Shown here in pieces: positions 13,447 through 63,676 of a stretch of DNA of 64,000 nt (within the stretch, counting starts at the first letter, position 1; each line of letters starts with the position of its first letter). The translations under genes and the position numbers were made by a program. The stretch is from Planctomycetota bacterium (GTDB taxonomy: Bacteria > Planctomycetota > MHYJ01 > JACQXL01 > JACQZI01). The notes below the pieces were generated by a model. The model was not told where the DNA came from. It was given only the letters and a program-made list of their open reading frames with translations, and did no database searches. The stretch spans positions 33,994 through 97,993 of the forward strand of contig JACQZI010000017.1 of assembly GCA_016207825.1 (NCBI GenBank), in the 5' to 3' direction.

Positions 13447-13754
13447 TGTACGGTAGGGAAGGGCGTTCTGTACGGTGGGGAGAGGTACTCCGTACGGTAT
13501 GGAAGCATACTCTGTACGGTCAGGAGCGGTATTCCGTACGGTATGGAGACACGCTCTATACGGTCAGGAGTGGTATTCCGTACGGTATGGAGGCACACTC
13601 TGTACGGTCGGGAGTGGTATTCCGTACGGTATGGAGGCATACTCTGTACGGTCGGTATGAGTATTCTGTACGGTCAGGAGAATGCACCTGATGGGTATGG
13701 AGAAGTATTCGCTTGGGTATCCGGGCACCTTCGCTATGGAATACTGGGATTCTC
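13447..13754. repeat. 22-bp repeat array 1a (about 14 units)
   Basis: Contiguous 22-bp units without spacers. Eleven clear units (13447-13688) share the core TGTACGGT at their start, and three decayed units follow to 13754. Two unit types alternate, one containing GTACGGTCAGGAGTGGTATTC-like sequence and the other GTACGGTATGGAGGCATACTC-like sequence, so there is also a 44-bp period. A C-rich stretch precedes the array and a short CTCCC-TTG-GGGAG palindrome (13752-13764) follows it. Not coding in any convincing sense. Confidence 0.85.
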
Positions 13755-13790
13755 CCTTGGGGAGGATAGTTTTTTTAACCTGAACCGACC

Positions 13791-13944
13791 CTAGTATAGA
13801 TTAATCCCACCTCTTGTATAGATTACTACCCGTCCTAGTATAGATTACAGCACCCTCTTATAAGGATTATATCCCCCTCTCGTATAGATTATATCTACTA
13901 CCCGCATAGATTGTACTATCCTATTACAGAATATACTCCACCTC
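13791..13944. repeat. 22-bp repeat array 1b (7 units)
   Basis: Seven contiguous units of exactly 22 bp that share a core GTATAGATTA and a C-rich second half. The consensus differs from array 1a, which ends 36 bp upstream; the two arrays are not in phase. Confidence 0.75.
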
Positions 13945-13970
13945 ATCATGGGATATCCATCCGGTATTTG

Positions 13971-14507
13971 TCATACTTTAGAAGAAGTTCTTTCCATGCT
14001 CCGTTCTGTACACCCTTGTAATGGACACGTCGGACAGTAAAACCAGGATTTATAAACCTCACCTAACCGCCCGGTGAGTTTAGCCTCACGCATTATTTTA
14101 ATGGCGTTTTTTAGTTTCTGGATAGCCTTATTTTGCACCTTAACTTTAAAGGTTTTGCCCGGATATTGGACCAATCCATATTTAGGCAATTTATTATAGG
14201 TGGCTTCCACTAAAAGCGCCTAGGCAATTAATTGCATCCGAACCGAACTATAAAGTTTTTTAGGCGGTGCGGCGGATTTAATTTCAACCGGTATGTAATT
14301 TTCGTCTTGTTTGATAACATAATCAGGATAGCCTCTGATAAAGTAACGAGGAGCCGAAAGCATTTTAGCATCTTTTACACTAATTCCTTTATAAACGATT
14401 TCCCCTGCGGGCATATTTGTTTCATTTTGCAAGGCTTTTGCTGAATGCCTTAAAACATACCATATGATAAAAAATAAAAGCGCAATAAATAAGAACCAAT
14501 AAATCAT
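13971..14507 (-). pseudogene. Membrane-anchored Cas4-like PD-(D/E)XK nuclease, catalytic half, interrupted by an amber codon
   Basis: The frame is open from the ATG at 14507 to 13971 except for one TAG at 14222-14220. It encodes an N-terminal transmembrane helix (YWFLFIALLFFIIWYVL), then the nuclease motifs of the Cas4/RecB class: GYPDYVI (Asp), IPVEIKSA (Glu-x-Lys), the Gln-motif QLIA-stop-ALLVEA, where the family normally has Tyr at the stop position, a KYGLVQYPGKTFKV strand, and a C-terminal YCPTCPLQGC with three cysteines. With the N-terminal Cys encoded by the gene just upstream this would complete a Cas4-type iron-sulfur site. Readthrough or a recent nonsense mutation are both possible. 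Confidence 0.7.
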
Positions 14508-14512
14508 CTTGT

Positions 14513-14773
14513 TTATTTAAGCATTAAGAGGATGATAAAAGCTAATAAAGACGAGAGTCCTATAATTAAGAATGCAACCGACCACCGGCTATAGCTCTGT
14601 TCTTTTTTAACGTTATCCTGCTGATGGGCATGGAAGACTTCGCCTTTATGTAATAATTCAAGGTCTGCGGAAATGACACCGGTTCTCCTGAGCCACCAGG
14701 CATGAGGGCAATAAAAGAATTCATTGATTTCTGATGCGCTAACCCATATTTCTTCGCGTTTATCCGGTTCCAT
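14513..14773 (-). CDS. Cas4-like nuclease, N-terminal half with a transmembrane helix
   Basis: An 86-residue protein carrying the opening motifs of the Cas4/Dna2-type nucleases: ISASEINEFFYCPHAWWLRR-like sequence with the first cluster cysteine, and LLHKGEVFHAHQQ with the conserved GxxxH. It then ends in a transmembrane helix (WSVAFLIIGLSSLLAFIILLML). The catalytic half is encoded by the next ORF, five bases downstream in another frame, and that ORF begins with a transmembrane helix. Together they would make a hairpin membrane anchor inserted between motif I and the catalytic Asp. No cas genes or CRISPR array are in the window. Confidence 0.6.
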   Translation of the reverse strand: MEPDKREEIWVSASEINEFFYCPHAWWLRRTGVISADLELLHKGEVFHAHQQDNVKKEQSYSRWSVAFLIIGLSSLLAFIILLMLK

Positions 14774-14815
14774 GATTTTACGATTTATAGTTCGCCCTGT
14801 CGTCCCCAGCTTTAG

Positions 14816-15171
14816 TTATAACCTCATTAATGTTTTGATATGTTTTTGCAATAGAACGAAATGATCTGATTCAAGCATGCCTATTTTAGTTGTCAACTGC
14901 CTTCTATCGATTGCCATTATTTGAAACGGCAATAATACCGACTTCATTTTAAGGCCATTTACAGGTGAGGGCTCAACAGGGAAAGCAAATGGAAAACGAA
15001 GAGCCCCACTTGTTTAGTAAAAGGAATAATTACAATAGTCGGGAGAGTGGAATAATCATCTTCATCCTGAACTATAACAACCGGCCTGGGTCCGCTTTGC
15101 ACATGCGTGTGTTGGTCTTTTGGAGAGGGTAAATTCGCGTAGACAATATCACCATTTTTAAATATCGCCAT
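14816..15171 (-). pseudogene. mazF: MazF/PemK-type toxin gene broken by a frameshift
   Basis: The first frame (from 15171) reads as a MazF-family mRNA endoribonuclease: FKNGDIVYANLPSPK, SGPRPVVIVQDED, LPTIVIIPFTK. It then runs out of frame near 15013-15020, around a run of A. The -1 frame resumes the family's second half (SGALRFPFAFPVEPS, NGLKMKSVLLPFQ, IMAIDRRQLTTKIGML) to a TAA at 14816. One missing base explains it. The result is a toxin truncated before its conserved C-terminal strands, so it is probably inactive. No recognisable MazE antitoxin precedes it; the upstream 85-residue protein occupies that position. Confidence 0.8.
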
Positions 15172-15181
15172 TTGTTATTTC

Positions 15182-15439
15182 TCATCTGGCTTCTTCATAA
15201 AGGCCTAATCCTTCTATTCCAGCCTGTTCTAACCCATGAAATTCTCTTTCGATTTCTTCGTTAATAAAAGGAGGATTTTCACTTATATTATCCGAGCCTG
15301 AATAAACGTAGTTGCTAAGGGGGATTCCAATAAGGTTCTTATCTTTCGTCACTTCAACCACATAAAAGACAATAGAAGGCTGTCCCCACTGGTCAGACCT
15401 TTCTCTCAATGCCGAACTGTTAATTTCTTTGGTTATCAT
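15182..15439 (-). CDS. Small protein of unknown function upstream of mazF
   Basis: About 85 residues from the ATG at 15439. An in-frame ATG at 15454 exists, but GGAGG eight bases before 15439 favours the inner start. The sequence (SALRERSDQWGQPSIVFYVVEV, NLIGIPLSNYVYSG, EEIEREFHGLEQAGIEGLGLYEEA) matches no family I can name. Its position 10 bases before the mazF remnant is that of an antitoxin, but no AbrB/MazE or RHH motif is visible. It abuts the end of the 238-residue upstream gene, so the three form one transcription unit. Confidence 0.55.
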   Translation of the reverse strand: MITKEINSSALRERSDQWGQPSIVFYVVEVTKDKNLIGIPLSNYVYSGSDNISENPPFINEEIEREFHGLEQAGIEGLGLYEEAR

Positions 15440-15440
15440 A

Positions 15441-16157
15441 TTAATTTCCTCCATTTGGCGTTGCGGTAATAAATTTTATTACTTCAGTTTTAGCGTAACT
15501 ATCCACTAAGTTTAGCAATTTCCCCGGCTCAAAATTCTTAGTGGGTTGCAATGGCTGCGGCCAAACAAATTGAGTTTCCACAAAGATTTTCTTGGTATAT
15601 CTTAAAAACGATTCTATTTTAACTTCTATTTCACAAGGAATCTTCTCATCTTTCTTCGGCGGCATAACAAGCCTGAGGCCACCTCCAAGAACTGGCCGGC
15701 CTAATGCCGACAAACCCGTCTCATCTTGCCCCAATCTTTTTTCCCAAAGATACTGAAACGCATGCTGTTCTTTTGATTGATACAGATATCTCAAGCAAAC
15801 ATCTCTTTTAATGATTTGAAACGGCTGTTTCCAAATATTATTAAACGACAAACAAATCGCCTCCGCCTGTTTAATAAAAAACGTGCTGTCCTCTTTTGGC
15901 TGAGATTCTATAATCAATAATTGCCCTATTCCTATGGGCGTTTGTGCTCCTGCTATGATTTTAAGCTGTAAGTTAGGGCTCTGTACTTCTTTAACAAAGT
16001 TAAAGCTGGTTTCTTCTCGTTGCGCCGTAACAAAATTAACGCCCTGCCCTCCCAGCTCTTTCTGTAAATCCAAAAACGCCTCTTTAGTCAATACTGGCAT
16101 TGGGGCAAAGATATAATTTACGCCAAAGTGAAATGGTATTCTTGATTCTGTTAACAT
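15441..16157 (-). CDS. Hypothetical protein, first gene of the accessory operon
   Basis: A 238-residue soluble protein with no signal peptide or membrane segment. It has alternating beta strands (FHFGVNYIFAPMPVL, NLQLKIIAGAQTPIGIGQLL, GGGLRLVMPP, EIEVKIESFLRYTKKIFVETQF) and a central helix. No catalytic motif is recognised. AGAGGA lies before the ATG, and a promoter is visible at 16171-16199. It leads an operon with the small 15182 gene, the mazF remnant and probably the Cas4-like genes. The association suggests an accessory or defence-related role, but only by neighbourhood. Confidence 0.7.
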   Translation of the reverse strand: MLTESRIPFHFGVNYIFAPMPVLTKEAFLDLQKELGGQGVNFVTAQREETSFNFVKEVQSPNLQLKIIAGAQTPIGIGQLLIIESQPKEDSTFFIKQAEAICLSFNNIWKQPFQIIKRDVCLRYLYQSKEQHAFQYLWEKRLGQDETGLSALGRPVLGGGLRLVMPPKKDEKIPCEIEVKIESFLRYTKKIFVETQFVWPQPLQPTKNFEPGKLLNLVDSYAKTEVIKFITATPNGGN

Positions 16158-16170
16158 ATATCCTCTTTAT

Positions 16171-16199
16171 ATAATACGAGTTCTTACATTCAAATGCAA
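16171..16199 (-). promoter_or_regulatory. Promoter of the 15441-13971 operon
   Basis: On the minus strand TTGCAT (16199-16194), 17 bases, TATTAT (16176-16171), then the ribosome site AGAGGA and the ATG at 16157. Confidence 0.6.
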
Positions 16200-16278
16200 G
16201 TAATTTTTACCGATTTTGTATAACCGCTATAATATCGGGAAACGCTTTATTAAAGTACACCTTTTCCCGCGTTGCCAT

Positions 16279-16461
16279 TCAACCTTTTTCCCCGCTAAGC
16301 CCTAAAAATGACACCCTCACTTCGGCGACCGGATTATCAGTTTCCTGTTTACCCACGCACCAGAAAGCCACAGGTGTAAAGCCGTGGAGCTTCATCGTAT
16401 CGCGCAGATTTAAGACACCCCGCACCTCTTGATTATTAACTTCACTTTGGTAATTTCTCAT
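16279..16461 (-). CDS. Small hypothetical protein behind the GH5-like gene
   Basis: About 60 residues; its ATG overlaps the stop of the upstream glycosidase (TGATG), so coupled translation is likely if it is real. The sequence (RGVLNLRDTMKLHGFTPVAFW, NPVAEVRVSFLGLSG) is not recognised. It could be a true small gene or the detached end of a longer ancestral glycosidase. Confidence 0.35.
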   Translation of the reverse strand: MRNYQSEVNNQEVRGVLNLRDTMKLHGFTPVAFWCVGKQETDNPVAEVRVSFLGLSGEKG

Positions 16462-17957
16462 CACGGCACGGCCAATATATAATCAGCCACTGCCGGAGTT
16501 ACGTTAATCGTGCCGAGAAAAGTTTCCCCAATCCAAATATCCACCGCATTATTTGCCTGATAAGAAAACACATTCACTTTAATTGAAGCCGTGTTTGCCG
16601 GAATATCCACATACAGCGTATTCACCTTATCAAGGTTTCCGGTCCACTGCCCCCAAGGCTCATTCGGATACCAGCCCTGCCCCTGGAGTTTATTGGCTTC
16701 AATCGTTCCGAAATCTACGCGTTTTAATACCGAAGTATCCGCCGCCAGAAACTCCAGATACGTAAAAGCCAGCGCCAGATACCTGCCGTCGCCCGGGACA
16801 GGGGTTGTTTCCACCTGCGAATATTGGAATTTTATCCTTTTGGCGGATGTATTCTGACCGGTAAAGTATTTATTTATTACTTCAACCGAAGGCTTGGCTT
16901 CCAGTGTGGAGCTGAAGGCGCCGTATTTCAAATCGAGATCCTCCGCCCCGGCGCGGCATAAAGCAGTCGCCGGCGGATTATTCAAATCCATAAGCATCCA
17001 AAAAATCCCACCGGCAAGGTTTTCGTTATTGAAAATAATATCGGAATGGCTTGCCAGGCGGGTGACATTGCCTGATGCGCTTGCCCAGGCGTTGCCGGCG
17101 GAGGCATAGCCGTATTCCTGGTCGACTATGGGCATAGCTTTGCCGAGGCTCGCTTTTAACGTTCGGATTTTCGGCCCTAAATCAGCCGGGTCTTCGTAAC
17201 GGTGGAAAGAGATAAAATCCACGAAATCCTTGGAATCCGCGGCTTTATCAATCTTCCCGAATCCAGCGGTGATAAGGTGGTTCCTGTCCAAAACACTGAT
17301 ATGCGCCGACATATCGCGGTAGAAGCTGAGGAGTTTGTCGTAATCCGTTCCGTATTTATCCACCAGCATATCGCCTTCGTTCATGATATCCCAGGCGGCG
17401 ATGGTCGGGCTATTGCGGAAATGCGGGATTAATTCCGTGAGGTATTTTTTGGGGGTTTCGTGGTCGCCATTATCGATAAAAGCCCAGCCGGGCATATAGT
17501 CAAAAAAGCCCAGTATTACCTTTAAGTTGTATTTCGCCGCGATATTGAGAAACCGCTGGATAGAGTTTATATAAGCCATGGTCGGGTGGTAATTGGTGTA
17601 GATATCTTTGCTTTCATCCGGATTATCGGTAGAATAACCGTAATCAATAAATGTCCTGACCGTATTCGCTCCGAGCGAGGAAGCCAGGGCAAGCTCTTCA
17701 TCCACTTCAACCCAATCCCATTCGGCCATGGACGCCCAGGCATAGTTCCTGGGGAAGTAATTAAAACCTTTCATGGTAAAGGCGGAATTTCCATGCATGA
17801 ATTTATCGCCGCTTGTGGTTAGGAAATAATTGCCGCTGCTGCCCGTATTGATATCATGGTTTTGGCTTCCGAAGCATCCTCTAAACGCAACGGTAAAAGA
17901 AACGATTAAGAAAGCTAACAGCAGGATAATAAGCTTTAACGCGCGCTTTTTCCCCAT
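16461..17957 (-). CDS. Exported GH5-like (clan GH-A) glycoside hydrolase
   Basis: About 500 residues with a signal sequence (LKLIILLLAFLIVSFTVAF) and a possible lipobox FRGC. A clan-A TIM barrel follows: FTMKGFNYFP, LGANTVRTFIDYG, the acid/base Glu in AAWDIMNEGD, SFHRYEDP, and the nucleophile Glu in PIVDQEYGYA. FWMLMDLN closes the barrel. After about residue 370 comes a beta-rich C-terminal domain resembling a carbohydrate-binding or FnIII-like module. The substrate is probably a beta-1,4-linked glucan or mannan, but this is not resolved. GTG at 17966 is an alternative start; the ATG at 17957 was preferred. Confidence 0.8.
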   Translation of the reverse strand: MGKKRALKLIILLLAFLIVSFTVAFRGCFGSQNHDINTGSSGNYFLTTSGDKFMHGNSAFTMKGFNYFPRNYAWASMAEWDWVEVDEELALASSLGANTVRTFIDYGYSTDNPDESKDIYTNYHPTMAYINSIQRFLNIAAKYNLKVILGFFDYMPGWAFIDNGDHETPKKYLTELIPHFRNSPTIAAWDIMNEGDMLVDKYGTDYDKLLSFYRDMSAHISVLDRNHLITAGFGKIDKAADSKDFVDFISFHRYEDPADLGPKIRTLKASLGKAMPIVDQEYGYASAGNAWASASGNVTRLASHSDIIFNNENLAGGIFWMLMDLNNPPATALCRAGAEDLDLKYGAFSSTLEAKPSVEVINKYFTGQNTSAKRIKFQYSQVETTPVPGDGRYLALAFTYLEFLAADTSVLKRVDFGTIEANKLQGQGWYPNEPWGQWTGNLDKVNTLYVDIPANTASIKVNVFSYQANNAVDIWIGETFLGTINVTPAVADYILAVP

Positions 17958-18056
17958 ATTAATCACTGACGATATTCCTAATAAACAGCTTTACTATATT
18001 ATTTATTACAGAGAACAGCCTGCTTAATTCCGTAATTTCGAGGAACCGTCATCCCA

Positions 18057-19865
18057 TTACTTCGGCGACCAGATGACTTGCTCCCCGATATCGCCTCCGT
18101 TGGTTGCCTGGTATATCTTGCCGCTTTCCACTTCTATCACGTAAATATTATAAGTCTTCCTGAAGGCAATCCATTTGCCGTCCGGACTCCAAGAGGGAGA
18201 TAATTCCTCATCCTTGCTATCGGTCAGATTCTTAAATTCGCTCCCATCCGCTTTCATAATACAGATATCATTGGTAAAATGTCCGTGGGGCGAACACTGG
18301 ACAATCACCAGGGAGCCGTCCGGAGACCAGATGAGCGGCTTTCGGTCCAAAATCTTTACATCCAATTGGGTTTTGTTGGTGCCTTCCGAATCCATGCTAA
18401 AAACCTTTACCCCTTCGCCTATCTTACTGCTGAGAAAGAGTATGCTGTCGTCTTTCGGAGAGCAAACAGGAAAATCGTCCCAGCCATCACTGTCAGTGAG
18501 CTGTTTTTCATCGCCGCCGTCTATGTCTATGCTAAAAATCCGGAAACTATTATCCCGTGAACTGCGGTAAACAAGGCGGTCACTGCCGGAAGACCAGCTG
18601 ATATTTTCCGCGCCGCCTTTGCCTGAAGTCAGCTGTTTAAGGCCGGAGCCATCGGGTCGGACAACCCATATATCCGGTGGATTATAGCTTCTGGAATTTT
18701 CAGTTTTGCTTTCCACGGAAGAAGAACTGAAGGCAATCCATCTGCCGTCCGGCGACCAGACCGGTGCGCGGTCTTCGGCATCGTTTTTGGTCAGGCGGGA
18801 CAGACCACGCCCGTCTATGTTTACGGTGTAGAGTTCTGTAGCCTCGCTTATGGGATGGGAATCAAAGACGAGCTTCATGCCGTCCGGCGACCAGGCGACG
18901 AAATCCTTGAAGCCGCCGGTCTTGGTGACCGGCTTGCACTTTGAGCCGTCCGGATTCATTACGTAAACCTCATACTGTCCCTCGCGGTTGGAAATGAAAG
19001 CAATCTTTCCCGGGAGCCCGGCGAGTTCGGCAACGGGCTTTTGCCTGGACTTCGCGCCGACATTGAAGCTATGCTTTTTTATTTTCCAAGCGCCCCCTTC
19101 TCTGACAAAATCCACAGAGCCTTCTCCTTCCTGGTCTCCCATCTTGCCTTCAAAGGAAAGTGTTCCTTCATCTCCGGAGATAGCCACATCCGTCACGGTC
19201 GTTTCGGTCGGCATAAAACCAATGGCCATGGACATAAGCTCCTGCGGGTCGCCCAGTTGCTCCATTTCCTTGATGGCATCCGCGGAAAGATATTTCTTTA
19301 GCTCTTTAAAGTCGCCGGATTTCATGGCTTTGCGGAAATTATCATAAAGTATTTTTAACGCGTCTTCATCGCTTGAGGGCTTTGATTCCGGTTTTGTATC
19401 TTTTTTATCCGGCTGGGGAACGGGCGGCTGGACGGGTTTGGGAGGGGCCGGAGGAGGGGTAAAATCGAACTCTTCATCAAACTTCTGCCCGGAAAACTTC
19501 CACTCACCGTCTTCCAGAACCATATAGACCGTGCCGGAAACGCTGCGTCCATTAAAGGTGCCATCCACCATCAGGCTCGCCTTTGACTGGAAGACAGAAA
19601 TACCGAAGATATCAACTTGAGAGGGCGTCTTCTTTTTAAGCTCCAGAAGTTTCTGTTTTGAATCGTCTGTTTCAAGCTCGTGGCGCAGTCCGGCGGTAAC
19701 ACATTTCTTAACCGTTTCCAGGTTTTCTTCGGCAACGGCAGTAATGTAATCGGTATACGCTTTTTTTGCCTCGCTCTTGTCGTCACCGACGGCTTTATAG
19801 ATAAAAGCACCGTTTAAAGAAATAACCGCCAAAGCGATAACCAGTGTTCTAAAAAAAGATTTCAT
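18057..19865 (-). CDS. Exported TolB-like beta-propeller protein
   Basis: 602 residues with a signal peptide (LVIALAVISLNGAFIYKAVG). Residues about 30-135 and 165-270 are two NTF2/DUF4878-like alpha+beta units (KAYTDYITAVAEENLETVKK, NFRKAMKSGDFKELKKYLSA), joined by a Pro/Lys-rich linker. The C-terminal half is a six-blade PD40/WD40-type propeller with the repeated signature 'sPDG..i.f' (GKIAFISNREGQYEVYVMNPDG, WSPDGMKLVFDS, WSPDGRWIAFSS, WSPDGKWIAF). TolB-type propellers bind proteins or peptides in the periplasm; no catalytic residues are seen. AAGGAGCG precedes the ATG. Confidence 0.85.
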   Translation of the reverse strand: MKSFFRTLVIALAVISLNGAFIYKAVGDDKSEAKKAYTDYITAVAEENLETVKKCVTAGLRHELETDDSKQKLLELKKKTPSQVDIFGISVFQSKASLMVDGTFNGRSVSGTVYMVLEDGEWKFSGQKFDEEFDFTPPPAPPKPVQPPVPQPDKKDTKPESKPSSDEDALKILYDNFRKAMKSGDFKELKKYLSADAIKEMEQLGDPQELMSMAIGFMPTETTVTDVAISGDEGTLSFEGKMGDQEGEGSVDFVREGGAWKIKKHSFNVGAKSRQKPVAELAGLPGKIAFISNREGQYEVYVMNPDGSKCKPVTKTGGFKDFVAWSPDGMKLVFDSHPISEATELYTVNIDGRGLSRLTKNDAEDRAPVWSPDGRWIAFSSSSVESKTENSRSYNPPDIWVVRPDGSGLKQLTSGKGGAENISWSSGSDRLVYRSSRDNSFRIFSIDIDGGDEKQLTDSDGWDDFPVCSPKDDSILFLSSKIGEGVKVFSMDSEGTNKTQLDVKILDRKPLIWSPDGSLVIVQCSPHGHFTNDICIMKADGSEFKNLTDSKDEELSPSWSPDGKWIAFRKTYNIYVIEVESGKIYQATNGGDIGEQVIWSPK

Positions 19866-19995
19866 AAAACGCTCCTTGTTTTTATTATAGCGCCTCTAAC
19901 ATTATTCAATAAAAGGCGTTTAGTCAAGAAAATACCGCGCGGGCGCTCTGCTCCACCGGTCGGAATAAAATCTTCAGATAAATATTATTTTTCTC

Positions 19996-20024
19996 TTGAT
20001 AAATCTATTTTTTGAGGATATAAT
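19996..20024 (+). promoter_or_regulatory. Promoter of the MshEN-pilB unit
   Basis: TTGATA (19996-20001), 17 bases, TATAAT (20019-20024). Fourteen bases separate it from the ATG at 20039, leaving a leader of about seven bases and no ribosome site. Confidence 0.7.
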
Positions 20025-20038
20025 ATATAGCAGTATTT

Positions 20039-20497: not shown

Positions 20498-20498
20498 C

Positions 20499-20516
20499 CC
20501 CGACACCCTTGTCGGG
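20499..20516. repeat. Mini-palindrome between the MshEN gene and pilB
   Basis: CCCGACA and TGTCGGG around a 4-base loop, immediately after the stop codon. There is no T-run on the plus strand. A sister element with the same plan lies at 44087-44104. Confidence 0.5.
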
Positions 20517-20536
20517 ACTTGCAAGAGACTAATTAT

Positions 20537-41412: not shown

Positions 41413-41638
41413 ATATGATTTTATCGGGTTATCCCATAAGGAGCGTTAGGGATACTTGGCATAGAAAAATATCCCGCCTTGCGACCAGAGGCTATAGTCC
41501 ACGAAGTGGGAAGTCCCCGTAGGTGGCGGGGACGGCTAAAACGCATATATTCGTTTGCATCTCAATTAAATGAGGTTTCAAAGGCAGGGGGGTGGTGCTA
41601 CTCCCCCCTCAACTTAGGGCTAACTACTCATAAATACG
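41413..41638. other. Gene-free stretch with two hairpins before the 22-bp array
   Basis: No open reading frame of note. GTCCCCG (41514-41520) pairs with CGGGGAC (41528-41534). A G6/C6 palindrome, AGGGGGG (41586-41592) with CCCCCCT (41603-41609), borders the array; a very similar palindrome borders the array at 63369-63676. Confidence 0.6.
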
Positions 41639-41902
41639 GTGAGACCCCATCTCAAATGCGGAGGGACTCCATGGCAAATGCGGAGGGACTCCATCTTAAA
41701 TGCGGTGATGCCCCATCTCAGATGCGGTGAGACCCCATCTCAAATGCAGAGAGACTCCATCTTAAATGCGGAGAGACCCCATCCCAAATGCGGAGGGACT
41801 CCATTCCAAATCCAGAGAGACCCCATCTTAAATGCGGAGAGGCTCCATGGCAAATGCGGTGGGACTCCATCTTAGATGCGGAGGGACTCCATGATAGTAA
41901 CG
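41639..41902. repeat. 22-bp repeat array 2 (12 units)
   Basis: Twelve contiguous units of exactly 22 bp with no spacers, core GACYCCATCTYAAATGCG. Variation is mostly at four or five positions per unit; several units read CCATGGCAAATGCG. Degenerate units can be made out on both sides. It lies between the polysaccharide cluster and the OLD-family nuclease gene. Confidence 0.9.
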
Positions 41903-42048: not shown

Positions 42049-43911
42049 TTAATTAAAACTTTTGTTTATCTCTACAAATAGAGGGATAAAACTCTCGGAA
42101 GCCTTAACAGAGCCATTTAACAACGAATTAGCATAATGAATTGCGACACCATTTTTATTAAAGTCTTTAGATAATTTCAGTTTAAAGTACTGCATTAGTT
42201 TTCTTCCTAATGTCCAATTGCTATCGATGCTTAATGAGCAATCATTAAATTTATCAGGTGTTATAGGAGTAAACCAATCAAATCCCTGATAAAAATCATT
42301 TACTGATTTTATATAGATGTCTATGCCGACAAGGTCTTCTATTGATTCGTTTTGATTAGAAGAACCCGTAATTTGATTAATTTCAATAGTTGGAGTGTGG
42401 CATTTTTCAGCTACTTTAATCATATCTTTATTTCCATCATCGCTATCACATAGAACAATTGACTTTTTGTTCTGACTACTAGCCGTTTTCAGGAATGGTT
42501 CTAAAGCCGCACCATCGTTACATGGAATAATGCTTATTTTAGTTAAATCAAGATGCGTTTTCCCATTAGACTTAAAATAATCCGAAATATTAGCTAAAAT
42601 TACCTGATCTGATATGCCCTCAACAAAAATATTCTGTTCTCCCAGAAAACCTAAATCGCCAAAGGAAACCCCAATAGACACTTTTAGAGGATCCCATATA
42701 TTAAGAAATTTATTTTCATCCCTTGGCGCATAGGGCTTATTATCAATCTTAGTCGCTTTGGTTTTAGGATTTCTGGTAAACAATCTAATCCGTTGCGGGA
42801 AATTCCAATCTATCATAAAAGGAGAATGGGTAGAATATGCAACTTGATGTTTCTGTGACAATTCATTTAGCATCTTTACAACAATGCGTTGTGCGTTAGG
42901 ATGCAAATTACAGGCTGGCTCATCAAATAAAACAATGGTCTGATTTTCTAATTTTTGGATAAACAAATATTCTATAACAAACGTTAAAAACCAATTGAGA
43001 CCTGTCCCGTAATAGCGCAGTTTATTCTCGTCTCGTATCTGTGCTGTTAGAAGAAAACTATTTCTCTTGTAACTGGATTCTTTACTGTGACTATTCCCCG
43101 CTAGCCTAATCTCGAAAGTAAGATCTGCAGGATCCCTCCACCACTTTTGCAAAACACCTGTTATTTTTTCAGATAATTCCTTTAATTTTTGTTCTATTTC
43201 CTCTTGAGTAAGATTTAATGGCCTTAGCCGTGGTGAATTATGCTTCGTAGTTTCAGCCCACGGCGCATCTACATTGTGGTTTGCTCTAATGTTAGCTTTT
43301 AAATCTACAATTGAAAGCAGTAATTTTTCCGTAGTAAAAGGCATAAATTCACTAGGTTGATCAGATAGAGGGGTTTCTGTAATGCATGGACCTGTTTCAT
43401 AAAATTGTGCTTCAAATAGTTCATTTAGTGCAACTTTTTCAGAAAGATTAATATATCTTATCTTTGGCAAAACAGATTGTTCAAAGTTTCTCATATCTTC
43501 TGTAATAGCCGGAAACTCTGTATTATCTTCATAGATATTGATATTTTCTGTATCGGCTAATAAAGAATATGATTGGTTTTTAGGTATATCCGAACGATGC
43601 TGATAACAAATTGTAATTAGTTTTGGTTTTTTATTCCCTAATAGTTGAGTGAACTTATCGTTTTTGATATCCTTATCTTCAACTACCCACAATGAATTAA
43701 ATCTTATACTGTTTGGATCTGCATTTTTTAACTGGCTTATATCCCAACCGGCCATGCCACCGTTTTTTATGTATTGGTCAAATAATCGGTGAAGTATGCT
43801 CGTTTTTCCTGTATCATTCTTGCCAATAAGAACTGTTACATAAGGATCAAAAGATAAAGACTGATTTATAAAATGTCTAAATTGATGTAGTTTTATTTCT
43901 TTTACTTTCAT
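42049..43911 (-). CDS. OLD-family ATPase/TOPRIM nuclease
   Basis: 620 residues. The N-terminal SMC/RecF-like ATPase has Walker A VLIGKNDTGKTSILH, the signature region RYYGTGLNWFLTFVIEYLF, Walker B QTIVLFDEPACNLHPNAQ and the His switch AYSTHSPFMID. The C-terminal TOPRIM domain has NIFVEGISDQVIL (Glu), IIPCNDGAALEPFL and SIVLCDSDDGNKDM (Asp-x-Asp). This is the layout of OLD nucleases, including GajA of the Gabija defence system and retron/PARIS-type relatives. No UvrD-like GajB partner follows, so it would be a single-gene (class 1-like) form. A role in phage defence or DNA repair is an inference from the family. Confidence 0.87.
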   Translation of the reverse strand: MKVKEIKLHQFRHFINQSLSFDPYVTVLIGKNDTGKTSILHRLFDQYIKNGGMAGWDISQLKNADPNSIRFNSLWVVEDKDIKNDKFTQLLGNKKPKLITICYQHRSDIPKNQSYSLLADTENINIYEDNTEFPAITEDMRNFEQSVLPKIRYINLSEKVALNELFEAQFYETGPCITETPLSDQPSEFMPFTTEKLLLSIVDLKANIRANHNVDAPWAETTKHNSPRLRPLNLTQEEIEQKLKELSEKITGVLQKWWRDPADLTFEIRLAGNSHSKESSYKRNSFLLTAQIRDENKLRYYGTGLNWFLTFVIEYLFIQKLENQTIVLFDEPACNLHPNAQRIVVKMLNELSQKHQVAYSTHSPFMIDWNFPQRIRLFTRNPKTKATKIDNKPYAPRDENKFLNIWDPLKVSIGVSFGDLGFLGEQNIFVEGISDQVILANISDYFKSNGKTHLDLTKISIIPCNDGAALEPFLKTASSQNKKSIVLCDSDDGNKDMIKVAEKCHTPTIEINQITGSSNQNESIEDLVGIDIYIKSVNDFYQGFDWFTPITPDKFNDCSLSIDSNWTLGRKLMQYFKLKLSKDFNKNGVAIHYANSLLNGSVKASESFIPLFVEINKSFN

Positions 43912-55238: not shown

Positions 55239-55244
55239 TATTCG

Positions 55245-55664: not shown

Positions 55665-55674
55665 ATAAATGGAT

Positions 55675-55797: not shown

Positions 55798-55814
55798 CGT
55801 TAGAGAAAAATGAT

Positions 55815-55842: not shown

Positions 55843-55852
55843 GAATTTTTGC

Positions 55853-55882
55853 TTGACTCAAATAGATTGTTTTTAGTATATT
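55853..55882 (+). promoter_or_regulatory. Leaderless promoter of the AmmeMemoRadiSam unit
   Basis: TTGACT (55853-55858), 18 bases, TATATT (55877-55882). The ATG follows six bases later at 55889. Confidence 0.6.
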
Positions 55883-55888
55883 AAATAT

Positions 55889-57436: not shown

Positions 57437-57447
57437 GGGTTTTTATT

Positions 57448-58617
57448 ATGGGAATCTCCCGACGCAAGTTCCTTAAAATAGCAGGCGTAACTTCAGCCGG
57501 CATCATCGCAGGAGCAGGAATAACAAAATTATTGTTCATACATGATAAACCTATAAAAACACCTCCGATGATAAATGCCGAATCATCTGATGACAAACCC
57601 GGCCTCCATGAAGCCATGTTTTACGAAAAACTCCCTGATAAAAAGATCAAATGCACTATCTGCCCAAGGTATTGTGTGGTATCGCCCGGCAATCGCGGCT
57701 ATTGCAGAAATAAAGAAAACCGTGAGGGGATTTATTACACGCTGGCGCACTCAAAAGCATGTTCAACTGCAATCGACCCTGTTGAAAAAAAACCGCTTTT
57801 CCATTTTTTGCCGGGAAGGAGGGCTTTTTCCCTGGCAACCGCTGGATGTAATTTCCAATGCCAAAACTGCCAGAACTGGCAGATTTCCCAATCAGACCCC
57901 GATAAATTAAAAAGCCAGGATTTATTTCCCCAAACAATAGTTACTATATGCCGGGAAAAAGAAATTCCGGTTATCGCCTTTACCTATTCCGAACCGACGG
58001 TTTTTTATGAATACATGCACGATACGGCAAAAATCGCCCGGGGAAACGGAATCGCCAGCGTAATGATTTCCAACGGCTATATAAACGAAAAACCGCTCAA
58101 GCGATTATGCCAAGAACTTAGTGCGGTAAAAATAGACCTGAAATCTTTCAGCGACGAGTTTTATCGGAAAATCTGCGGCGGCCAGCTACAACCGGTTTTA
58201 GATACTCTTTTAACACTGAAGAAAATCGGCATCTGGTTTGAAATCGTAACCCTGATTATCCCCTCATTAAACGACAGCGAAGGGGAAATAGAAAAAATGT
58301 GCCTCTGGATCAAAGAAAACCTTGGGACAAATATTCCTTTGCATTTTTCCCGATTTACCCCAACTTATAAACTTACGAATTTACCGCAGACACCGGTGAG
58401 CACTTTGGTAAAAGCATATAATATCGCACGCACAACGGGCTTGAACTTTGTCTATTTAGGCAATGTTTCTCCTCACGATTATGAATCCACTTACTGCCCG
58501 AATTGCAAAACCACTTTAATAAAAAGAACCGCATTTGATGTAAAAACAATTAGCCTGAAAAATGGAAAGTGTTCATCCTGCCAGACATCTATTCCTGGCG
58601 TTTGGCAAGTGAAATAA
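57448..58617 (+). CDS. AmmeMemoRadiSam system radical SAM enzyme with Tat signal
   Basis: 389 residues. The N-terminus is a twin-arginine signal (SRRKFLKIAGVTSAGIIAGAG). A Cys-rich block follows (CTICPRYCVVSPGNRGYCRNKEN), then the radical SAM [4Fe-4S] motif CNFQCQNC (C-x3-C-x2-C) and the barrel (IAFTYSEPTVFYEYM, ASVMISNGYINEKPL, AVKIDLKSFSDEFY). A C-terminal zinc ribbon has CPNCKTTLIKR and GKCSSCQTSIPG. A Tat signal fits export of a folded, cofactor-loaded protein and matches the lipoprotein partner upstream. Confidence 0.9.
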   Translation: MGISRRKFLKIAGVTSAGIIAGAGITKLLFIHDKPIKTPPMINAESSDDKPGLHEAMFYEKLPDKKIKCTICPRYCVVSPGNRGYCRNKENREGIYYTLAHSKACSTAIDPVEKKPLFHFLPGRRAFSLATAGCNFQCQNCQNWQISQSDPDKLKSQDLFPQTIVTICREKEIPVIAFTYSEPTVFYEYMHDTAKIARGNGIASVMISNGYINEKPLKRLCQELSAVKIDLKSFSDEFYRKICGGQLQPVLDTLLTLKKIGIWFEIVTLIIPSLNDSEGEIEKMCLWIKENLGTNIPLHFSRFTPTYKLTNLPQTPVSTLVKAYNIARTTGLNFVYLGNVSPHDYESTYCPNCKTTLIKRTAFDVKTISLKNGKCSSCQTSIPGVWQVK

Positions 58618-58640
58618 TTCTGTTTATTATTATTTTTTTC

Positions 58641-58669
58641 TTGCATTTAATCAATCGATGTAGTATTAT
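58641..58669 (+). promoter_or_regulatory. Promoter of the coiled-coil gene
   Basis: TTGCAT (58641-58646), 17 bases, TATTAT (58664-58669); the ribosome site AAGAGGGG lies before the ATG at 58710. The same box pair occurs at 16171-16199. Confidence 0.55.
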
Positions 58670-58709
58670 GATTTGGTAACATATTATATTAACAAGAGGG
58701 GTGTATCAT

Positions 58710-59807
58710 ATGAGAAACCTACTTTTAATCATTATGATATTAGGCATGCTGGCCGGGATAGGCGCAGCTTATTTCGGCATAACCGAACGTCAAAAAGCGC
58801 TTGAGGCAAAAGACACCGCTGCCACCAAAGAAAAAAATGCTGTCGATGAACAAAAAGCTGCCGAGAACGAACGGGACGAAGCGGTTACCAAAAAAAATGA
58901 TGCTGAAAGCAAGATGAAAGAGGCGATGATAGAAACAGAACGCTACAAAGGCATTGCGGACCAAGCCACTAAAAAAGCCCAGGAAGAAACGAATAAAGCA
59001 GACGAAGCTATAAGCAAAGAAGCCCAGGCCAATAAAAGACATGATGACATGAAAATAAAGATGGAAAACGCCATACTTGATGCGGAACAGGCCAGAAAAG
59101 AACGTGACGAGGCTTTAGGGAATTCCGCAGGCGCAGAACAAATAAAAGAGGAAGCAGAAAAAAACCTCGCCCAGATGACCGATGATATGGATAAAATCAG
59201 GGAAGAATTCAACAAAATGAAGGAACTCACCGATAATGTCGCAAAACTCACCGGTTTTATAGGCAAATTTACAACTATCCTTATAAATGATATTCAAAGC
59301 GGAGACGACACCTTTGTTGAAGGACTCGATTTATTCCAATCCGCCGAAACGGTAAAAAACAAGGCTAAAGCCATAAAATTAATCTCTGAAGCGGGTAAAA
59401 AATATGAAAGGGCTAAAGGACAAATTGACAAATTAGAACCTACCGGCCGTGCAACCGAAGATATCATAAAAACAATGTCTTCTAGCGTCATGGAAAACAT
59501 CCAATGCATCAGGGAAACAAGCGAATTCCTAACCACTTTATCGCAAGACAACAACCCGAATAATCAGGCCCTAAAAAAAGAACGTTACACTAAATATATT
59601 AATATACGCCGGCGTAAGGAAAAAGCCGACAGCCTGATGAGCGATATTTGCGGAAACATCTTAAAACTAATGGAAGAAAATAAAGGCAATTTCCTGCCGT
59701 CACATCAGGCAATAATAAACCGTGCCCAGGATAATTTTTACAAGAGATGGCGGTCGGCTCCGGAGGGTTCCGAGGAAAACACATCTACCAATCCTCCGAA
59801 AGAATAA
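58710..59807 (+). CDS. Membrane-anchored coiled-coil protein
   Basis: 365 residues from the ATG at 58710. A GTG at 58701 is in frame but overlaps the ribosome site GAGGGG. A single transmembrane helix (NLLLIIMILGMLAGIGAAYFG) is followed by a long Lys/Glu/Ala-rich coiled coil (about 25-175; KAAENERDEAVTKKNDAESKM, AEKNLAQMTDDMDKIREEF) and a helical C-terminal domain. There is no sign of an enzyme. It may be a scaffold in the cell envelope. The next gene begins two bases after its stop. Confidence 0.7.
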   Translation: MRNLLLIIMILGMLAGIGAAYFGITERQKALEAKDTAATKEKNAVDEQKAAENERDEAVTKKNDAESKMKEAMIETERYKGIADQATKKAQEETNKADEAISKEAQANKRHDDMKIKMENAILDAEQARKERDEALGNSAGAEQIKEEAEKNLAQMTDDMDKIREEFNKMKELTDNVAKLTGFIGKFTTILINDIQSGDDTFVEGLDLFQSAETVKNKAKAIKLISEAGKKYERAKGQIDKLEPTGRATEDIIKTMSSSVMENIQCIRETSEFLTTLSQDNNPNNQALKKERYTKYINIRRRKEKADSLMSDICGNILKLMEENKGNFLPSHQAIINRAQDNFYKRWRSAPEGSEENTSTNPPKE

Positions 59808-59809
59808 CA

Positions 59810-60775
59810 ATGTTGCGGATGAATGTGATTTTCAAAGCCACTTGCATTGTAATTATTCTGTTTGGTTTAAACTGCCAATTTAATCCGCCTTCTGACACTG
59901 AAAACGAAAAAGCAGCTGTTCCGAAAATCGCAACCGACCCAAAACTAATCCCTCCCCCTCCAAGAACACCCCTAGAGATAGTACGGGACAGCCCGGCAGA
60001 TGTAATCCACCGAGATGTCATCCAAAAAATATCCGAGGGGAAATACCTGACGGCGCTTGAAGAAATAAATATGATGGCTAATGCCCACACTTCTTCAGAA
60101 GCTTATGTTATCGAAGCACAGATTTTAAGGTTAATCCTGCTTACTTCTCTCCGTATTTCCTATCTACACCTTGCGAACGGCTATCAGAAAGGATGGGAAA
60201 CCGTCCTGAAAATGCCTGATGAGTATTTAGCCGTTAAAGAACGTACCGATCGGCTTACTAATCTATCCAGGATTTCTGGAAATTACTATGAACTCCACAA
60301 AAAAATCTCAGTTCAATTAATAAAAGCCTATGACACTTTCAGCGAGATTCAGCCTGATTTTATAAAAGGCCGCTTGCGTATAATCGCATTGGGATTCAAA
60401 TATTCGAAAATCATACCAAACACTACTCTGGAAAAAATAAAAGAAGGCGTTTTACCCGCAACCGCTACACGGGAAGAAGCCGAAAAGGCAGAAATTCATA
60501 ATTGCATCCTGCTTTTCTGGACGGCGTTAACCGGATTATATTCTTGGTTAGCCGGCTCTTTCCGGTGGCAAACTGAAGAATGCCCCGATGAAGCATTCGG
60601 TGATAAACCCGACCTTCGGAAAATCCTCCTTAACAGAGCAAAAGATTTCTTGATAGTTACCGAACAATTAACGGCTAAAGAACCTTCTCCTGCGCCTAAC
60701 GAAAAAAAGCCGCTTTTTCTTCCTGAGCAATATTATCCGGAAACGCTCTTTCCGAAACCGGCCCCAAAAAAATAG
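59810..60775 (+). CDS. Hypothetical lipoprotein
   Basis: About 320 residues from the ATG at 59810; the reading frame is open further upstream but only inside the preceding gene. The signal sequence ends in the lipobox FGLNC. A Pro-rich linker (PKLIPPPPRTPLEIV) and a helical domain (KYLTALEEINMMANAHTSSEAY..., ILLFWTALTGLYSWLAGSFRW) follow. No family is recognised; the helical part could be TPR-like. It is coupled to the coiled-coil gene and converges with murD. Confidence 0.65.
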   Translation: MLRMNVIFKATCIVIILFGLNCQFNPPSDTENEKAAVPKIATDPKLIPPPPRTPLEIVRDSPADVIHRDVIQKISEGKYLTALEEINMMANAHTSSEAYVIEAQILRLILLTSLRISYLHLANGYQKGWETVLKMPDEYLAVKERTDRLTNLSRISGNYYELHKKISVQLIKAYDTFSEIQPDFIKGRLRIIALGFKYSKIIPNTTLEKIKEGVLPATATREEAEKAEIHNCILLFWTALTGLYSWLAGSFRWQTEECPDEAFGDKPDLRKILLNRAKDFLIVTEQLTAKEPSPAPNEKKPLFLPEQYYPETLFPKPAPKK

Positions 60776-60778
60776 CCA

Positions 60779-62185
60779 TTAGGAAAACCTCATGACAAGT
60801 TTCTTAAAAAGGTTCCCTCGCTCGGCAAAGTTGTTGAACATGTCATAGCTGGCGCAGGACGGCGAAAGAAGGACGGTTTCTCCCCGTTTTGCAACTCGGC
60901 AGGCAATATGAACAGCTTCATCAAACGACCTGGGCATTATAATATCTTTTTCTTTCACCCCTTTTTTAATAAACGCATCTCTGATTTTACCGGCGGTTGC
61001 ACCTACTAAAACAGCAATCCGAACATATTTCGCCACCGCTACGGCCATATCATCAAAAGGCAATTTTTTATCGTACCCGCCTGCAATCAGGATAATTTTT
61101 GGCTTAGCGTTTTTTGATATGGCACGTAATGCTCCTATGGTAGATTCCGGATTTGTTGCAATAGAATCATTATAATACCTGACTCCTTTAAATTCCCGCA
61201 CGAATTCCAAGCGGTGCTCTACCCCTTTAAACTTTTTGACGACTTTTGCTATAAATGGTGCTGGGACGCCTAAAATATTCGCGGCTGTAATCGCAGCCAG
61301 GATATTATCCTGATTAAAATCGCCTAACAATTTTATCTCCGAAGTTCGGCAAACAAAAACAGGCATAGCGGAGCCGGATTTTAAATAAAAACCATCGTCT
61401 TTAATAAACCCGCCTTTTTTAACATTTCCCTTCCGACTGAAAGCAAAAACCTCACCCAGACAATCCTTTGACCAAGCAAAAACGGTTTTATCGTCCTTAT
61501 TCAAAACCGCGTAAGAGTTTTTATCCTGATATCGGATAATATTCTTCTTTGCATTGCTATAGTTTTCCATTGTCCCATGGCGATCCAGATGATTCGGCTG
61601 TATATTCAAAATAACTGATAAAAAAGGACTCTTTCTTAGCTTGCCTAAATCATCCAACTGAAAACTGGAAAGTTCTAAAACAACGATATCATCCGATGAA
61701 ATTTTATTAAGCTGAGCAAGGAGAGACCCCCGTCCGATATTGCCTCCCACCCAAACTTTTTGGTTAAGCCCTGTCCGTAATATTTCCCCAAGTAAAGCTG
61801 TGGTTGTGGTCTTGCCGTTACTGCCGGTAATGCCTATAATACGTGCCGGGCACAAACGGAAAAACAGGTTCATTTCCGTTTCCAAAAGTATTTTATGCTT
61901 ACGCGCTATTTTCAGGTAAGGAGAACCTGTCGGTACAGAAGGATTAACAACGATTAAATCAGATTTCTCGAAATCAGGCGCATGGTGTCTTCCCAAATGA
62001 TAAATAACACCTTTCAGTTTAGAAAGCTTTCTAATGGTTTTTTTCAGTTCCTTTTCCGGTTTCAAATCGGTTACCGTCACCTTAGCTCCGTTCGTCGCAA
62101 AGAACTTCACAGCCCCGGCGCCTCCGCCGAATAAGCCTAGCCCCATTATTAAAACTTTCTTGCCGAAAAACTGGTTATAAATCAT
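60779..62185 (-). CDS. murD: UDP-N-acetylmuramoylalanine-D-glutamate ligase
   Basis: 468 residues. It adds D-Glu to UDP-MurNAc-L-Ala in the cytoplasm. The N-terminal Rossmann-like domain (KVLIMGLGLFGGGAGAVKFFATNGA) is followed by the ATP site GITGSNGKTTTTALLGEIL, VLELSSFQLDDL, ILNIQPNHLDRHGTMENY, and the C-terminal VEHRLEFVREFKGVRYYNDSIATNPES and LLSPSCASYDMFNNFAERG. All are standard for Mur ligases of the MurD type. Its presence argues for peptidoglycan. It is not in a mur operon here; it lies 8 bases after an outer-membrane protein gene. Confidence 0.93.
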   Translation of the reverse strand: MIYNQFFGKKVLIMGLGLFGGGAGAVKFFATNGAKVTVTDLKPEKELKKTIRKLSKLKGVIYHLGRHHAPDFEKSDLIVVNPSVPTGSPYLKIARKHKILLETEMNLFFRLCPARIIGITGSNGKTTTTALLGEILRTGLNQKVWVGGNIGRGSLLAQLNKISSDDIVVLELSSFQLDDLGKLRKSPFLSVILNIQPNHLDRHGTMENYSNAKKNIIRYQDKNSYAVLNKDDKTVFAWSKDCLGEVFAFSRKGNVKKGGFIKDDGFYLKSGSAMPVFVCRTSEIKLLGDFNQDNILAAITAANILGVPAPFIAKVVKKFKGVEHRLEFVREFKGVRYYNDSIATNPESTIGALRAISKNAKPKIILIAGGYDKKLPFDDMAVAVAKYVRIAVLVGATAGKIRDAFIKKGVKEKDIIMPRSFDEAVHIACRVAKRGETVLLSPSCASYDMFNNFAERGNLFKKLVMRFS

Positions 62186-62193
62186 TTTTATCC

Positions 62194-63276
62194 CTAAAAA
62201 CTAAACCTGACACCTATCATCACCGATTGCTGCATACTTCTTATCCGGGAATCTATCCCGCTTATAGAAGCCCCCGTTTCATCACCGGCTCCAGCAGGGT
62301 CATCCCCATACCAGTATTGAACCTGTGTTCCTATCGTATCAATTTTCATCATAAAACCGTTTATATGAAACAGGCAACTTGGGCGAAATGTCCACTCTGC
62401 ATTTATCCTAAATAAAACAGCATTGCCTTGGCAATTATTCTCGGAAATTTTATTGCGCAATAAATGGTCGTCCGTATCATTTGCATGGACGATATTGGAA
62501 TAACCCATTTGCAACTTTATATCCAATTGCTCACCGGCAACGATATCTGAATTTATCCCCAGATATGGAATCCGGTATTCCACCTGATAATCCAACACAT
62601 CTCCGTTTACGATTCCCGTATAAAGCGGAGCGTAGGCGCCGTATCCGACTTGTTCAACATCAGAAACGTCGTATTCAAATGATTGAAAAATATATCCTGC
62701 CAAAATCCCTGCGGCTATTTTTTCATTGCGGAAAACGTTATATACGCCGTTTATTTCCATGGATTGGGCAAACATTTTTGCAGTAGATTCAGAATAAATA
62801 TCCAGCCCGTTATTCACTTGCCCAACCACGGCAATATCCGTTGCATTGGTCAACCAATCAGAATCTTTTAAAGCACCGGAAGCCCCTGCCAGGGATATTA
62901 AAGATTTTATTCCTACTTCCCACTGATGCCATTCGTTTTCAAGGCCTTTTTGCCTAACGCAAAAATCTACTCCAAACAGGAGGCTCTCTAAAGGAAACTC
63001 CAGTTGGCTAACCCCATCTTTAAAATCTATTTTATAAGTCGTATGTCCCGACATACTGCCGGTCATAAAATTCGCGGAAACTTCTTTATCATCCGAAGCC
63101 GCATTTTTAACAGCCGTTCGATCTGAACCGGATAATTTGGTGTCTGCTATATATTTATCTGATTTAAGATTCTGCGGATTTATAGACCCGATTGATACAC
63201 CCTGCCTCGCCGCCAAACAGGTTTGGCATGACGTAAGGATTAAAGTAAGAATAACGGAACAAACAGCAATTTTCAT
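62194..63276 (-). CDS. Outer-membrane beta-barrel protein, omptin-like
   Basis: 360 residues with a signal peptide (VCSVILTLILTSCQTCLA) and alternating strands to a C-terminal Phe (QSVMIGVRFSF), the usual end of outer-membrane barrels. SGHTTYKIDF, LKDSDWLTN and the stretch ANDTDDHLLRNK recall the Asp and Asp-His positions of omptin proteases, so a surface protease is possible. Strand-by-strand identity cannot be judged by eye. The ~50 residues after the signal are unlike omptins and are probably an extension. Confidence 0.5.
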   Translation of the reverse strand: MKIAVCSVILTLILTSCQTCLAARQGVSIGSINPQNLKSDKYIADTKLSGSDRTAVKNAASDDKEVSANFMTGSMSGHTTYKIDFKDGVSQLEFPLESLLFGVDFCVRQKGLENEWHQWEVGIKSLISLAGASGALKDSDWLTNATDIAVVGQVNNGLDIYSESTAKMFAQSMEINGVYNVFRNEKIAAGILAGYIFQSFEYDVSDVEQVGYGAYAPLYTGIVNGDVLDYQVEYRIPYLGINSDIVAGEQLDIKLQMGYSNIVHANDTDDHLLRNKISENNCQGNAVLFRINAEWTFRPSCLFHINGFMMKIDTIGTQVQYWYGDDPAGAGDETGASISGIDSRIRSMQQSVMIGVRFSF

Positions 63277-63291
63277 GATTTAATATTATGC

Positions 63292-63321
63292 ATAATATCA
63301 TTTAGATAGACAGATTGTCAA
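63292..63321 (-). promoter_or_regulatory. Promoter of the omptin-like gene
   Basis: On the minus strand TTGACA (63321-63316), 18 bases, TATTAT (63297-63292), 15 bases before the ATG at 63276. Confidence 0.5.
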
Positions 63322-63368
63322 TGATTGATATGAATGTTTTCGTAACCTTATGTCTTTCAATCATATTT

Positions 63369-63676
63369 TTTTAGCAGGGGTAGAGCGTATATTGCAGATG
63401 GGGAGTATAACTATTGTAAGGGAGAGGCGTAACCGTTAGAAGCGGGGAGTATCACCGTTAGAGGCGGGGGATTCTTCCACTTAAGATAGGGAGTATATCC
63501 GTTGGAGGGATGGACTACAACCGTTAGAGGATGGGGGAATAACCGTTATAGGCGGGGAGTATTACCGTTAGAAACGGGGGATTCTTCCATTTAAGATAGG
63601 GAGTATATCCGTTAGAGACGGGGAGAGGTAAGGTTAGAGGCGGGGGGTAAGCCTGGAGAGGGTGGGGGGAGGTAGT
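63369..63676. repeat. 22-bp repeat array 3 (14 units)
   Basis: Fourteen contiguous units of exactly 22 bp, purine-rich on the plus strand, core GTTAGAGGCGGGGAGTAT. Units 63435-63500 and 63545-63610 repeat the same three-unit series (the last of them AAGATAGGGAGTATATCC), so a 110-bp higher period is superimposed. The right edge is a palindrome GGGGGG-AGGTAGT-CCCCCC (63664-63682). Confidence 0.9.

What the first reader, a model, noticed from the sequence alone, without database searches (positions are those of the whole stretch)
13447..63676. A family of 22-bp-period repeat arrays with different consensus sequences at each locus
Four intergenic arrays (13447-13754, 13791-13944, 41639-41902, 63369-63676) consist of contiguous units of exactly 22 bp, 7 to 14 units each, with no spacers. 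The period is strictly conserved but the unit sequence is not: each array has its own consensus. Random minisatellites would not be expected to share one length. Twenty-two bp is close to two helical turns, so equal bases fall on the same DNA face, which suggests a repetitive DNA-binding protein or a bend. Alternatively, one replication or recombination mechanism may create 22-bp units from whatever sequence is present. Two arrays lie beside nuclease-type accessory genes. I know of no named element of this kind.
Basis: partly seen in the sequence, partly recalled or inferred. Interest (0 to 1): 0.88.

Follow-up and report, generated by a model that had tools for sequence, protein, structure and literature searches.

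The report
Capped 22-bp arrays without shared sequence
An uncultivated bacterium and its relatives carry, about every 30,000 bases, a non-coding block of roughly 13 back-to-back 22-letter units whose length is fixed but whose spelling differs from block to block, usually next to a recognisable G/C-rich 'cap'; this matters because I found no described element that keeps a repeat length without keeping a sequence.

Summary
All four window arrays exist. In the 32% of the genome I could read there are 30 arrays of period 22, 6 of period 21 and 9 of all other lengths together; resampled sequence gives none. Extrapolated: about 90 per genome. The same arrays occur in a congener (8 in 263 kb), in another family of the order (9 in 280 kb) and in a fourth genome of the order, but not in the unrelated bacterial or viral DNA scanned. 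Units share no consensus between genomes, have no 11-bp harmonic, no common RNA fold and no decay of similarity with distance. What is conserved is architecture: about 13 units, usually a G-run/C-run cap (GGGGGTA...TACCCC) at one end, and a site between genes, never between divergent promoters. Arrays disperse as units; their ends stay alike while interior units change together. At one syntenic locus two congeners each carry an array with unrelated units. Best reading: a bacterial satellite-like element, marked by its cap, whose units are made and homogenised by a process with a two-helical-turn ruler. Enzyme and function are unknown. A reverse-transcriptase origin is not supported; a DNA bend is unlikely; the nuclease neighbours look incidental.

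The parts
13425..13446 (.). C-rich, TACCC-type sequence at the left end of array 1 (atypical cap variant)
   Evidence: CCTACCC/CCCTACC k-mers are enriched at array ends genome-wide; sequence; the loose cap test did not score it as a cap
13431..13760 (.). Array 1: about 15 x 22 bp, with a 44-bp A/B alternation of units
13672..13778 (.). Right end of array 1, repeated on contig C19 (L049:59-165) at 86% identity
13787..13962 (.). Array 2: about 8 x 22 bp, degenerate
41587..41608 (.). Cap of array 3: GGGGGGTGGTGCTACTCCCCCC hairpin
41584..41891. Array 3: 22-bp units (14; units clearly repeating from 41632), unit close to AAATGCGGAGAGACTCCATCTC
63398..63661 (.). Array 4: about 12 x 22 bp; paralogues on C38 (87% identity over 317 bp) and C18 (67%)
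63664..63682 (.). Cap of array 4: GGGGGGAGGTAGTCCCCCC hairpin, also present in the C38 copy

Best explanation
These are copies of one class of non-coding chromosomal element: a tandem array of about 13 units of 22 bp, usually bounded on one side by a short G-run/C-run inverted repeat (the cap). I propose that the cap is the conserved, recognised part, and that the units are generated and re-homogenised in place by a DNA-processing event of fixed reach (22 bp, sometimes 21: two helical turns), for example repeated staggered nicking or slippage plus gap filling, or short-tract conversion. The unit is therefore defined by length, not by sequence. Whole arrays are also copied now and then to new intergenic sites. 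SHOWN: the period, its dominance, the lack of a shared unit consensus, the conserved cap, the lineage restriction, dispersal of whole arrays, joint change of interior units with conserved ends, and a syntenic array with unrelated units. INFERRED: the ruler, the role of the cap, and the in-place regeneration. UNKNOWN: the enzyme, and whether the host uses the element or merely tolerates it.
For: 22 dominates in three genomes: 30 of 45 arrays in 0.92 Mb of own genome, 9 of 18 in G003, 8 of 17 in G001; zero in resampled sequence. Autocorrelation is sharp at 22, 44 and 66 (+0.36, +0.36, +0.34), flat at 21 and 23, and does not fall with distance. Cross-genome unit similarity equals a column-permuted null (mean z 0.27). 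Cap: the k-mer GGGGGTA occurs 23 times at array ends against 0.64 expected in own and 18 against 0.17 in G003. The exact pattern GGGGGTAN{0,12}TACCCC gives 19, 19 and 9 hits in G000, G003 and G007 and at most 2 in any other of 59 genomes. Of cap sites in order genomes 16 of 17 adjoin a lag-22/44 array, against 0 of 16 elsewhere. Paralogous arrays keep first and last units and cap while inner units differ; in the congener, arrays L392 and L398 share both ends but their units agree in about 11 of 22 positions (by eye). Columns conserved in the other units differ less between paralogues: 28/499 against 206/1173, Fisher p 6e-12. Upstream of one orthologous gene (83% identity) both congeners have an array with unrelated units.
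Against: No enzyme was found. The Y1/RAYT-type transposase family does not track the arrays. Some arrays lack an obvious cap (3 of 36 on a loose test; many lack the exact pattern), and 21-bp arrays mostly lack one. The column-conservation result could equally mean purifying selection on a binding site. Only one syntenic locus is clean; a second (L396/L422) has the arrays about 70 and 560 bp from the shared segment; at another locus the congener has no array.
Confidence: 0.45

Rival explanations
1. Multi-site binding platform: each array is a row of sites on one DNA face, spaced by two helical turns, for a repeating or filament-forming protein; selection keeps spacing and a per-array consensus.
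For: Exact spacing over up to 19 units, no decay with distance; position-specific conservation within units in many arrays (dispersion up to 3.3); conserved columns change least between paralogues.
Against: No common motif across arrays or genomes; unrelated units at a syntenic locus. A binder would have to ignore sequence, or each array would need its own binder.
Confidence: 0.2
2. Selfish miniature mobile element of the REP/MITE sort, moved in trans by a transposase that recognises the cap; the array is passenger DNA prone to slippage.
For: Dispersed copies whose homology stops near the array edges; position between tandem or convergent genes and never between divergent ones (0 of 34 against 72 of 281 gaps, p 1.3e-4; convergent 9 of 34 against 22 of 281, p 2.5e-3), as reported for REPs (PMC3733652).
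Against: No target-site duplication was demonstrated; Y1 transposases are few (one fragment in own genome) and also present in relatives with no cap hits. Does not by itself explain one fixed unit length with free sequence.
Confidence: 0.2
3. Transcribed repeat RNA (guide-like or sponge RNA) cut into 22-nt pieces.
For: Some arrays are preceded by a sigma70-like promoter (L024: TTGACA-N17-TATAGT), and the cap could act as a terminator-like hairpin.
Against: Promoter-like sequence is not general by eye; no shared or unusual fold (mean z -0.4 and -0.5 on the two strands); no Rfam family in the window besides a tRNA.
Confidence: 0.08
4. Ordinary minisatellites made by replication slippage, with 22 favoured by chance or by assembly.
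For: Tandem arrays are common in bacteria; these genomes are probably metagenome assemblies.
Against: Period distribution, several assemblies of different families, conserved cap, and units only 50-80% identical.
Confidence: 0.04
5. Reverse-transcriptase-templated repeats, telomerase- or DRT-like, copying a 22-nt template.
For: Units look like independent imperfect copies of one template (no decay with distance).
Against: No RVT_1 match in own (98% complete), G003 (96%) or G007.
Confidence: 0.03

Closest known systems
Borg tandem-repeat regions (PMC9879509)
   Same: Many dispersed tandem arrays per genome, often intergenic, sequence differing by locus, fast evolving; about 0.6% of the genome.
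   Different: Borg units are perfect, of several lengths (18, 20 and 21 nt in the example read), about half lie in ORFs, and they are reported as virtually absent from host chromosomes. Here units are 50-80% identical, of one length, non-coding, chromosomal and capped.
REP/BIME/REPIN elements with RAYT transposases (PMC3733652, PMC3116915, PMC8266576)
   Same: Dispersed, extragenic, palindromic part, between co-directional or convergent genes.
   Different: REPs are conserved in sequence, 20-40 bp, tagged GTAG or CGTC at the foot of the stem; no 22-bp array.
Iteron arrays, for example four 22-bp repeats at the chlamydial plasmid origin (PMC4748734)
   Same: Direct repeats of 22 bp.
   Different: One locus, one sequence, a replication origin on a plasmid; here about 90 chromosomal loci with free sequence.
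Intrastrand triplex motifs (PMC4666352)
   Same: Some caps have the G-run/G-run/C-run layout; such motifs are linked to genome instability.
   Different: Only 10 of 36 arrays show it (about ten-fold enriched); no tandem array is part of that motif.
VNTR minisatellites
   Same: Tandem non-coding units.
   Different: Here one period in unrelated sequences, and no decay of similarity with distance.

Membership tests
VNTR minisatellites | Unit length varies from locus to locus | tested here: not met
   30 arrays of 22 and 6 of 21 against 9 of all other lengths
VNTR minisatellites | Neighbouring units most alike (stepwise slippage) | tested here: not met
   +0.36, +0.36, +0.34 at lags 22, 44, 66
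REP/BIME | 20-40 bp palindrome conserved in sequence, tagged GTAG or CGTC at its foot | tested here: inconclusive
   Cap is palindromic and some caps hold GTAG, but in the loop, and loops vary
REP/BIME | Located between co-directional or convergent genes | tested here: met
   0 of 34 divergent, 9 of 34 convergent
REP/BIME | RAYT (Y1) transposase partner | tested here: inconclusive
   PF01797: one fragment in own, two in G003, but five in G004 and five in G002 with no cap hits
CRISPR array | Near-identical repeats separated by unique spacers | tested here: not met
   Contiguous diverged units, no spacers
TIGR guide arrays | Tas gene with Nop5-like domain nearby | not tested
Iteron origin | Single locus beside a rep gene | tested here: not met
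   30 loci in 0.92 Mb
Borg tandem repeats | Perfect units of mixed length, half in ORFs | tested here: not met
   Imperfect units, one length, intergenic
Intrastrand triplex elements | C-run/G-run/G-run layout | tested here: not met
   10 of 36 arrays
Retro-element / DRT product | Reverse transcriptase in the genome | tested here: not met
   No RVT_1 in G000, G003, G007

The most novel reading that the evidence does not exclude
A length-measuring DNA-synthesis or repair activity in this order writes arrays of two-helical-turn units from any local sequence next to a G/C cap and keeps rewriting them, so that the host carries about 90 small satellites defined by architecture and not by sequence.
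Probability: 0.35. Interest if true: 0.9.

Novelty: categorically new. Interest (0 to 1): 0.8.

Why it matters
Families of repeats are normally defined by sequence. Here period, length, cap and position are conserved while the sequence is free, in genomes of at least two families. That points to an unknown process that measures DNA length, or to a function that reads spacing only. Either could be tested directly: the cap gives a simple pattern to search for, and congeners about 84% identical in DNA give replaced arrays in place. It would also give bacteria something close to satellite DNA with concerted evolution.

Tried and rejected
RNA folding of array cores against a column-permuted null: not special. 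DNA bend or helical sub-period of 10-11 bp: absent. One shared unit motif after rotation and strand choice: only a few paralogous subfamilies. G-quadruplex as the general cap: only 8 of 36 arrays. Intrastrand triplex as the general cap: 10 of 36. Reverse transcriptase: absent. RAYT transposase: does not track the arrays. Viral origin: 80 viral loci with cap-like matches, 0.65 Mb, hold no period-22 array. Naming the host: an ArgRS tree placed own and relatives in a clade of their own, so the phylum is not named. Literature searches for arrays of fixed period with free sequence found none. A first resampling control was spoiled by masked Ns in L009 and was redone.

Full report
1. The observation. 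The window is part of a 2.89-Mb genome in 42 contigs, 97.6% complete. I could read 0.92 Mb of it. Counting windows of 88 positions that match at one lag in at least 52 places, there are 30 arrays of period 22 (including multiples), 6 of period 21, and 9 of all other lengths together. Three Markov-1 resamples give none. The density, one per 31 kb, extrapolates to about 94 per genome. A typical array has 13 units, range 7 to 19.

2. Period without sequence. Averaged over the period-22 arrays of two genomes, excess identity is +0.36, +0.36 and +0.34 at lags 22, 44 and 66, and about zero at 21, 23 and at 10-11, in four-letter, W/S, R/Y and K/M alphabets. Similarity does not decay with distance between units, which is not what stepwise slippage would leave. 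With the best rotation and strand, units of different arrays resemble each other more than column-permuted units only within a few subfamilies; between the two genomes the mean z is 0.27.

3. The cap. At array ends the 7-mer GGGGGTA occurs 23 times against 0.64 expected in the own genome, and 18 against 0.17 in G003, a genome of another family. The pattern GGGGGTAN{0,12}TACCCC hits G000 19 times, G003 19, G007 9 and G001 once; the other genomes of 59 have at most 2, about as many as the backward control (class-wide). Of 17 cap loci in those four genomes 16 have 22 or 44 as the top lag within 420 bp, against 0 of 16 cap loci elsewhere. Some cap sites with no array above threshold have weak period-22 next to them. 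Some caps also fit a triplex layout, but not most.

4. Distribution. Arrays are in the congener G001 (8 of period 22 and 3 of period 21 in 263 kb), in G003 (9 and 6 in 280 kb) and in G007. Other order and class members have no cap hits above background, but they are fragmented and were sampled thinly, so absence there is weak. Eighty loci of named, unrelated bacteria (1.39 Mb) gave one isolated lag-44 hit and no lag-22 array. Eighty viral loci with cap-like matches gave none.

5. Behaviour. Whole arrays are dispersed: array 4 and C38; C10, C27 and C38; C10 and C38 again; homology mostly stops near the array edges, though two pairs continue into a downstream gene. In the C10/C27/C38 set the first unit is near-identical in all three and the last units match in two, while inner units differ and are often closer to non-colinear units. 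In the congener, arrays L392 and L398 share both ends while their unit consensus agrees in about half of positions (by eye). So units change together while ends stay. Between paralogues, columns conserved in the other units differ in 28 of 499 cells and variable columns in 206 of 1173 (p 6e-12): this fits short-tract conversion and also fits selection on a site; I cannot separate the two. At own C7 near 32 kb and in G001 contig C12, both genomes have an array upstream of the same gene (83% identity), with unrelated units. A second locus (own C5 near 108 kb; G001 C13) is similar but looser. At a third, the congener has only 300 bp where the own genome has 5 kb with an array.

6. Context. Arrays lie between genes: 0 of 34 are between divergent genes (background 72 of 281 gaps, p 1.3e-4), 9 of 34 are between convergent genes (22 of 281, p 2.5e-3). 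Gene calls were made with a home-made hexamer finder, so these counts are approximate. Flanking genes are diverse. In the window, array 3 adjoins an OLD-like AAA/TOPRIM gene and array 4 an omptin-family gene.

7. Mechanism. Ordinary slippage does not give one length in unrelated sequences. A sequence-specific binder does not fit the absence of a motif. A ruler of two helical turns (22, sometimes 21) does. What applies it is unknown; reverse transcription is not supported and the Y1 transposase family does not track the arrays. I hold the ruler-plus-homogenisation reading at 0.45, a binding platform at 0.2 and a REP-like mobile element at 0.2. The last two can be true together with the first.

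8. Known or new. It fails at least one tested feature of minisatellites, CRISPR arrays, iterons, Borg repeats and triplex elements, and is inconclusive for REPs (membership table). Nothing in the literature I could search describes a fixed period with free sequence and a cap. Limits: one third of the genome was read, the assemblies are probably metagenomic, and the host phylum was not named.

Noticed in passing
L398:1077-1132; L022:15050-15097 and 4838-4910: A separate dispersed repeat of about 50-60 bp (CGGGGACACCCGATAATAGGGAGTCCC type, inverted-repeat-like), with 30 or so copies in the own genome and many in the congener.
   Followed up: no
L021:4542-4879, L033:1046-1325, L052:18156-18470, L150:587-868, L162:12853-13138, L164:1571-1868, L392:7469-7708, L423:3265-3573: Arrays of 21-bp units, apparently mostly non-coding and mostly without a cap, sometimes right beside a 22-bp array (L162, L164). 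A few other 21-bp hits lie inside ORFs.
   Followed up: partly
window 13971-14773, minus strand: What looks like a Cas4-like PD-(D/E)XK nuclease gene broken into three ORFs, next to array 2 (reading of the translations, not profile-tested).
   Followed up: no
window 42049-43911, minus strand: OLD-like AAA ATPase with TOPRIM domain, a possible defence nuclease.
   Followed up: partly
window 62194-63276, minus strand: Omptin-family outer-membrane protease homologue (Pfam E 4e-16).
   Followed up: no
L173:9282-10265, L169:1471, L168:11795 (G003): Several copies of a CCCCTCT..AGAGGGG..GGGG hairpin with a third G-run, like published intrastrand triplex motifs, away from the arrays.
   Followed up: no
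L185:1076-1419 (G010, same class): A 43-bp-period array (84 of 88 matches) just upstream of a Y1 transposase gene.
   Followed up: no
L146:888-2333 (G001): Long repeats of period 78.
   Followed up: no
L009 (own contig C1): 7758 of 20000 bases are masked as N in the held copy.
   Followed up: no
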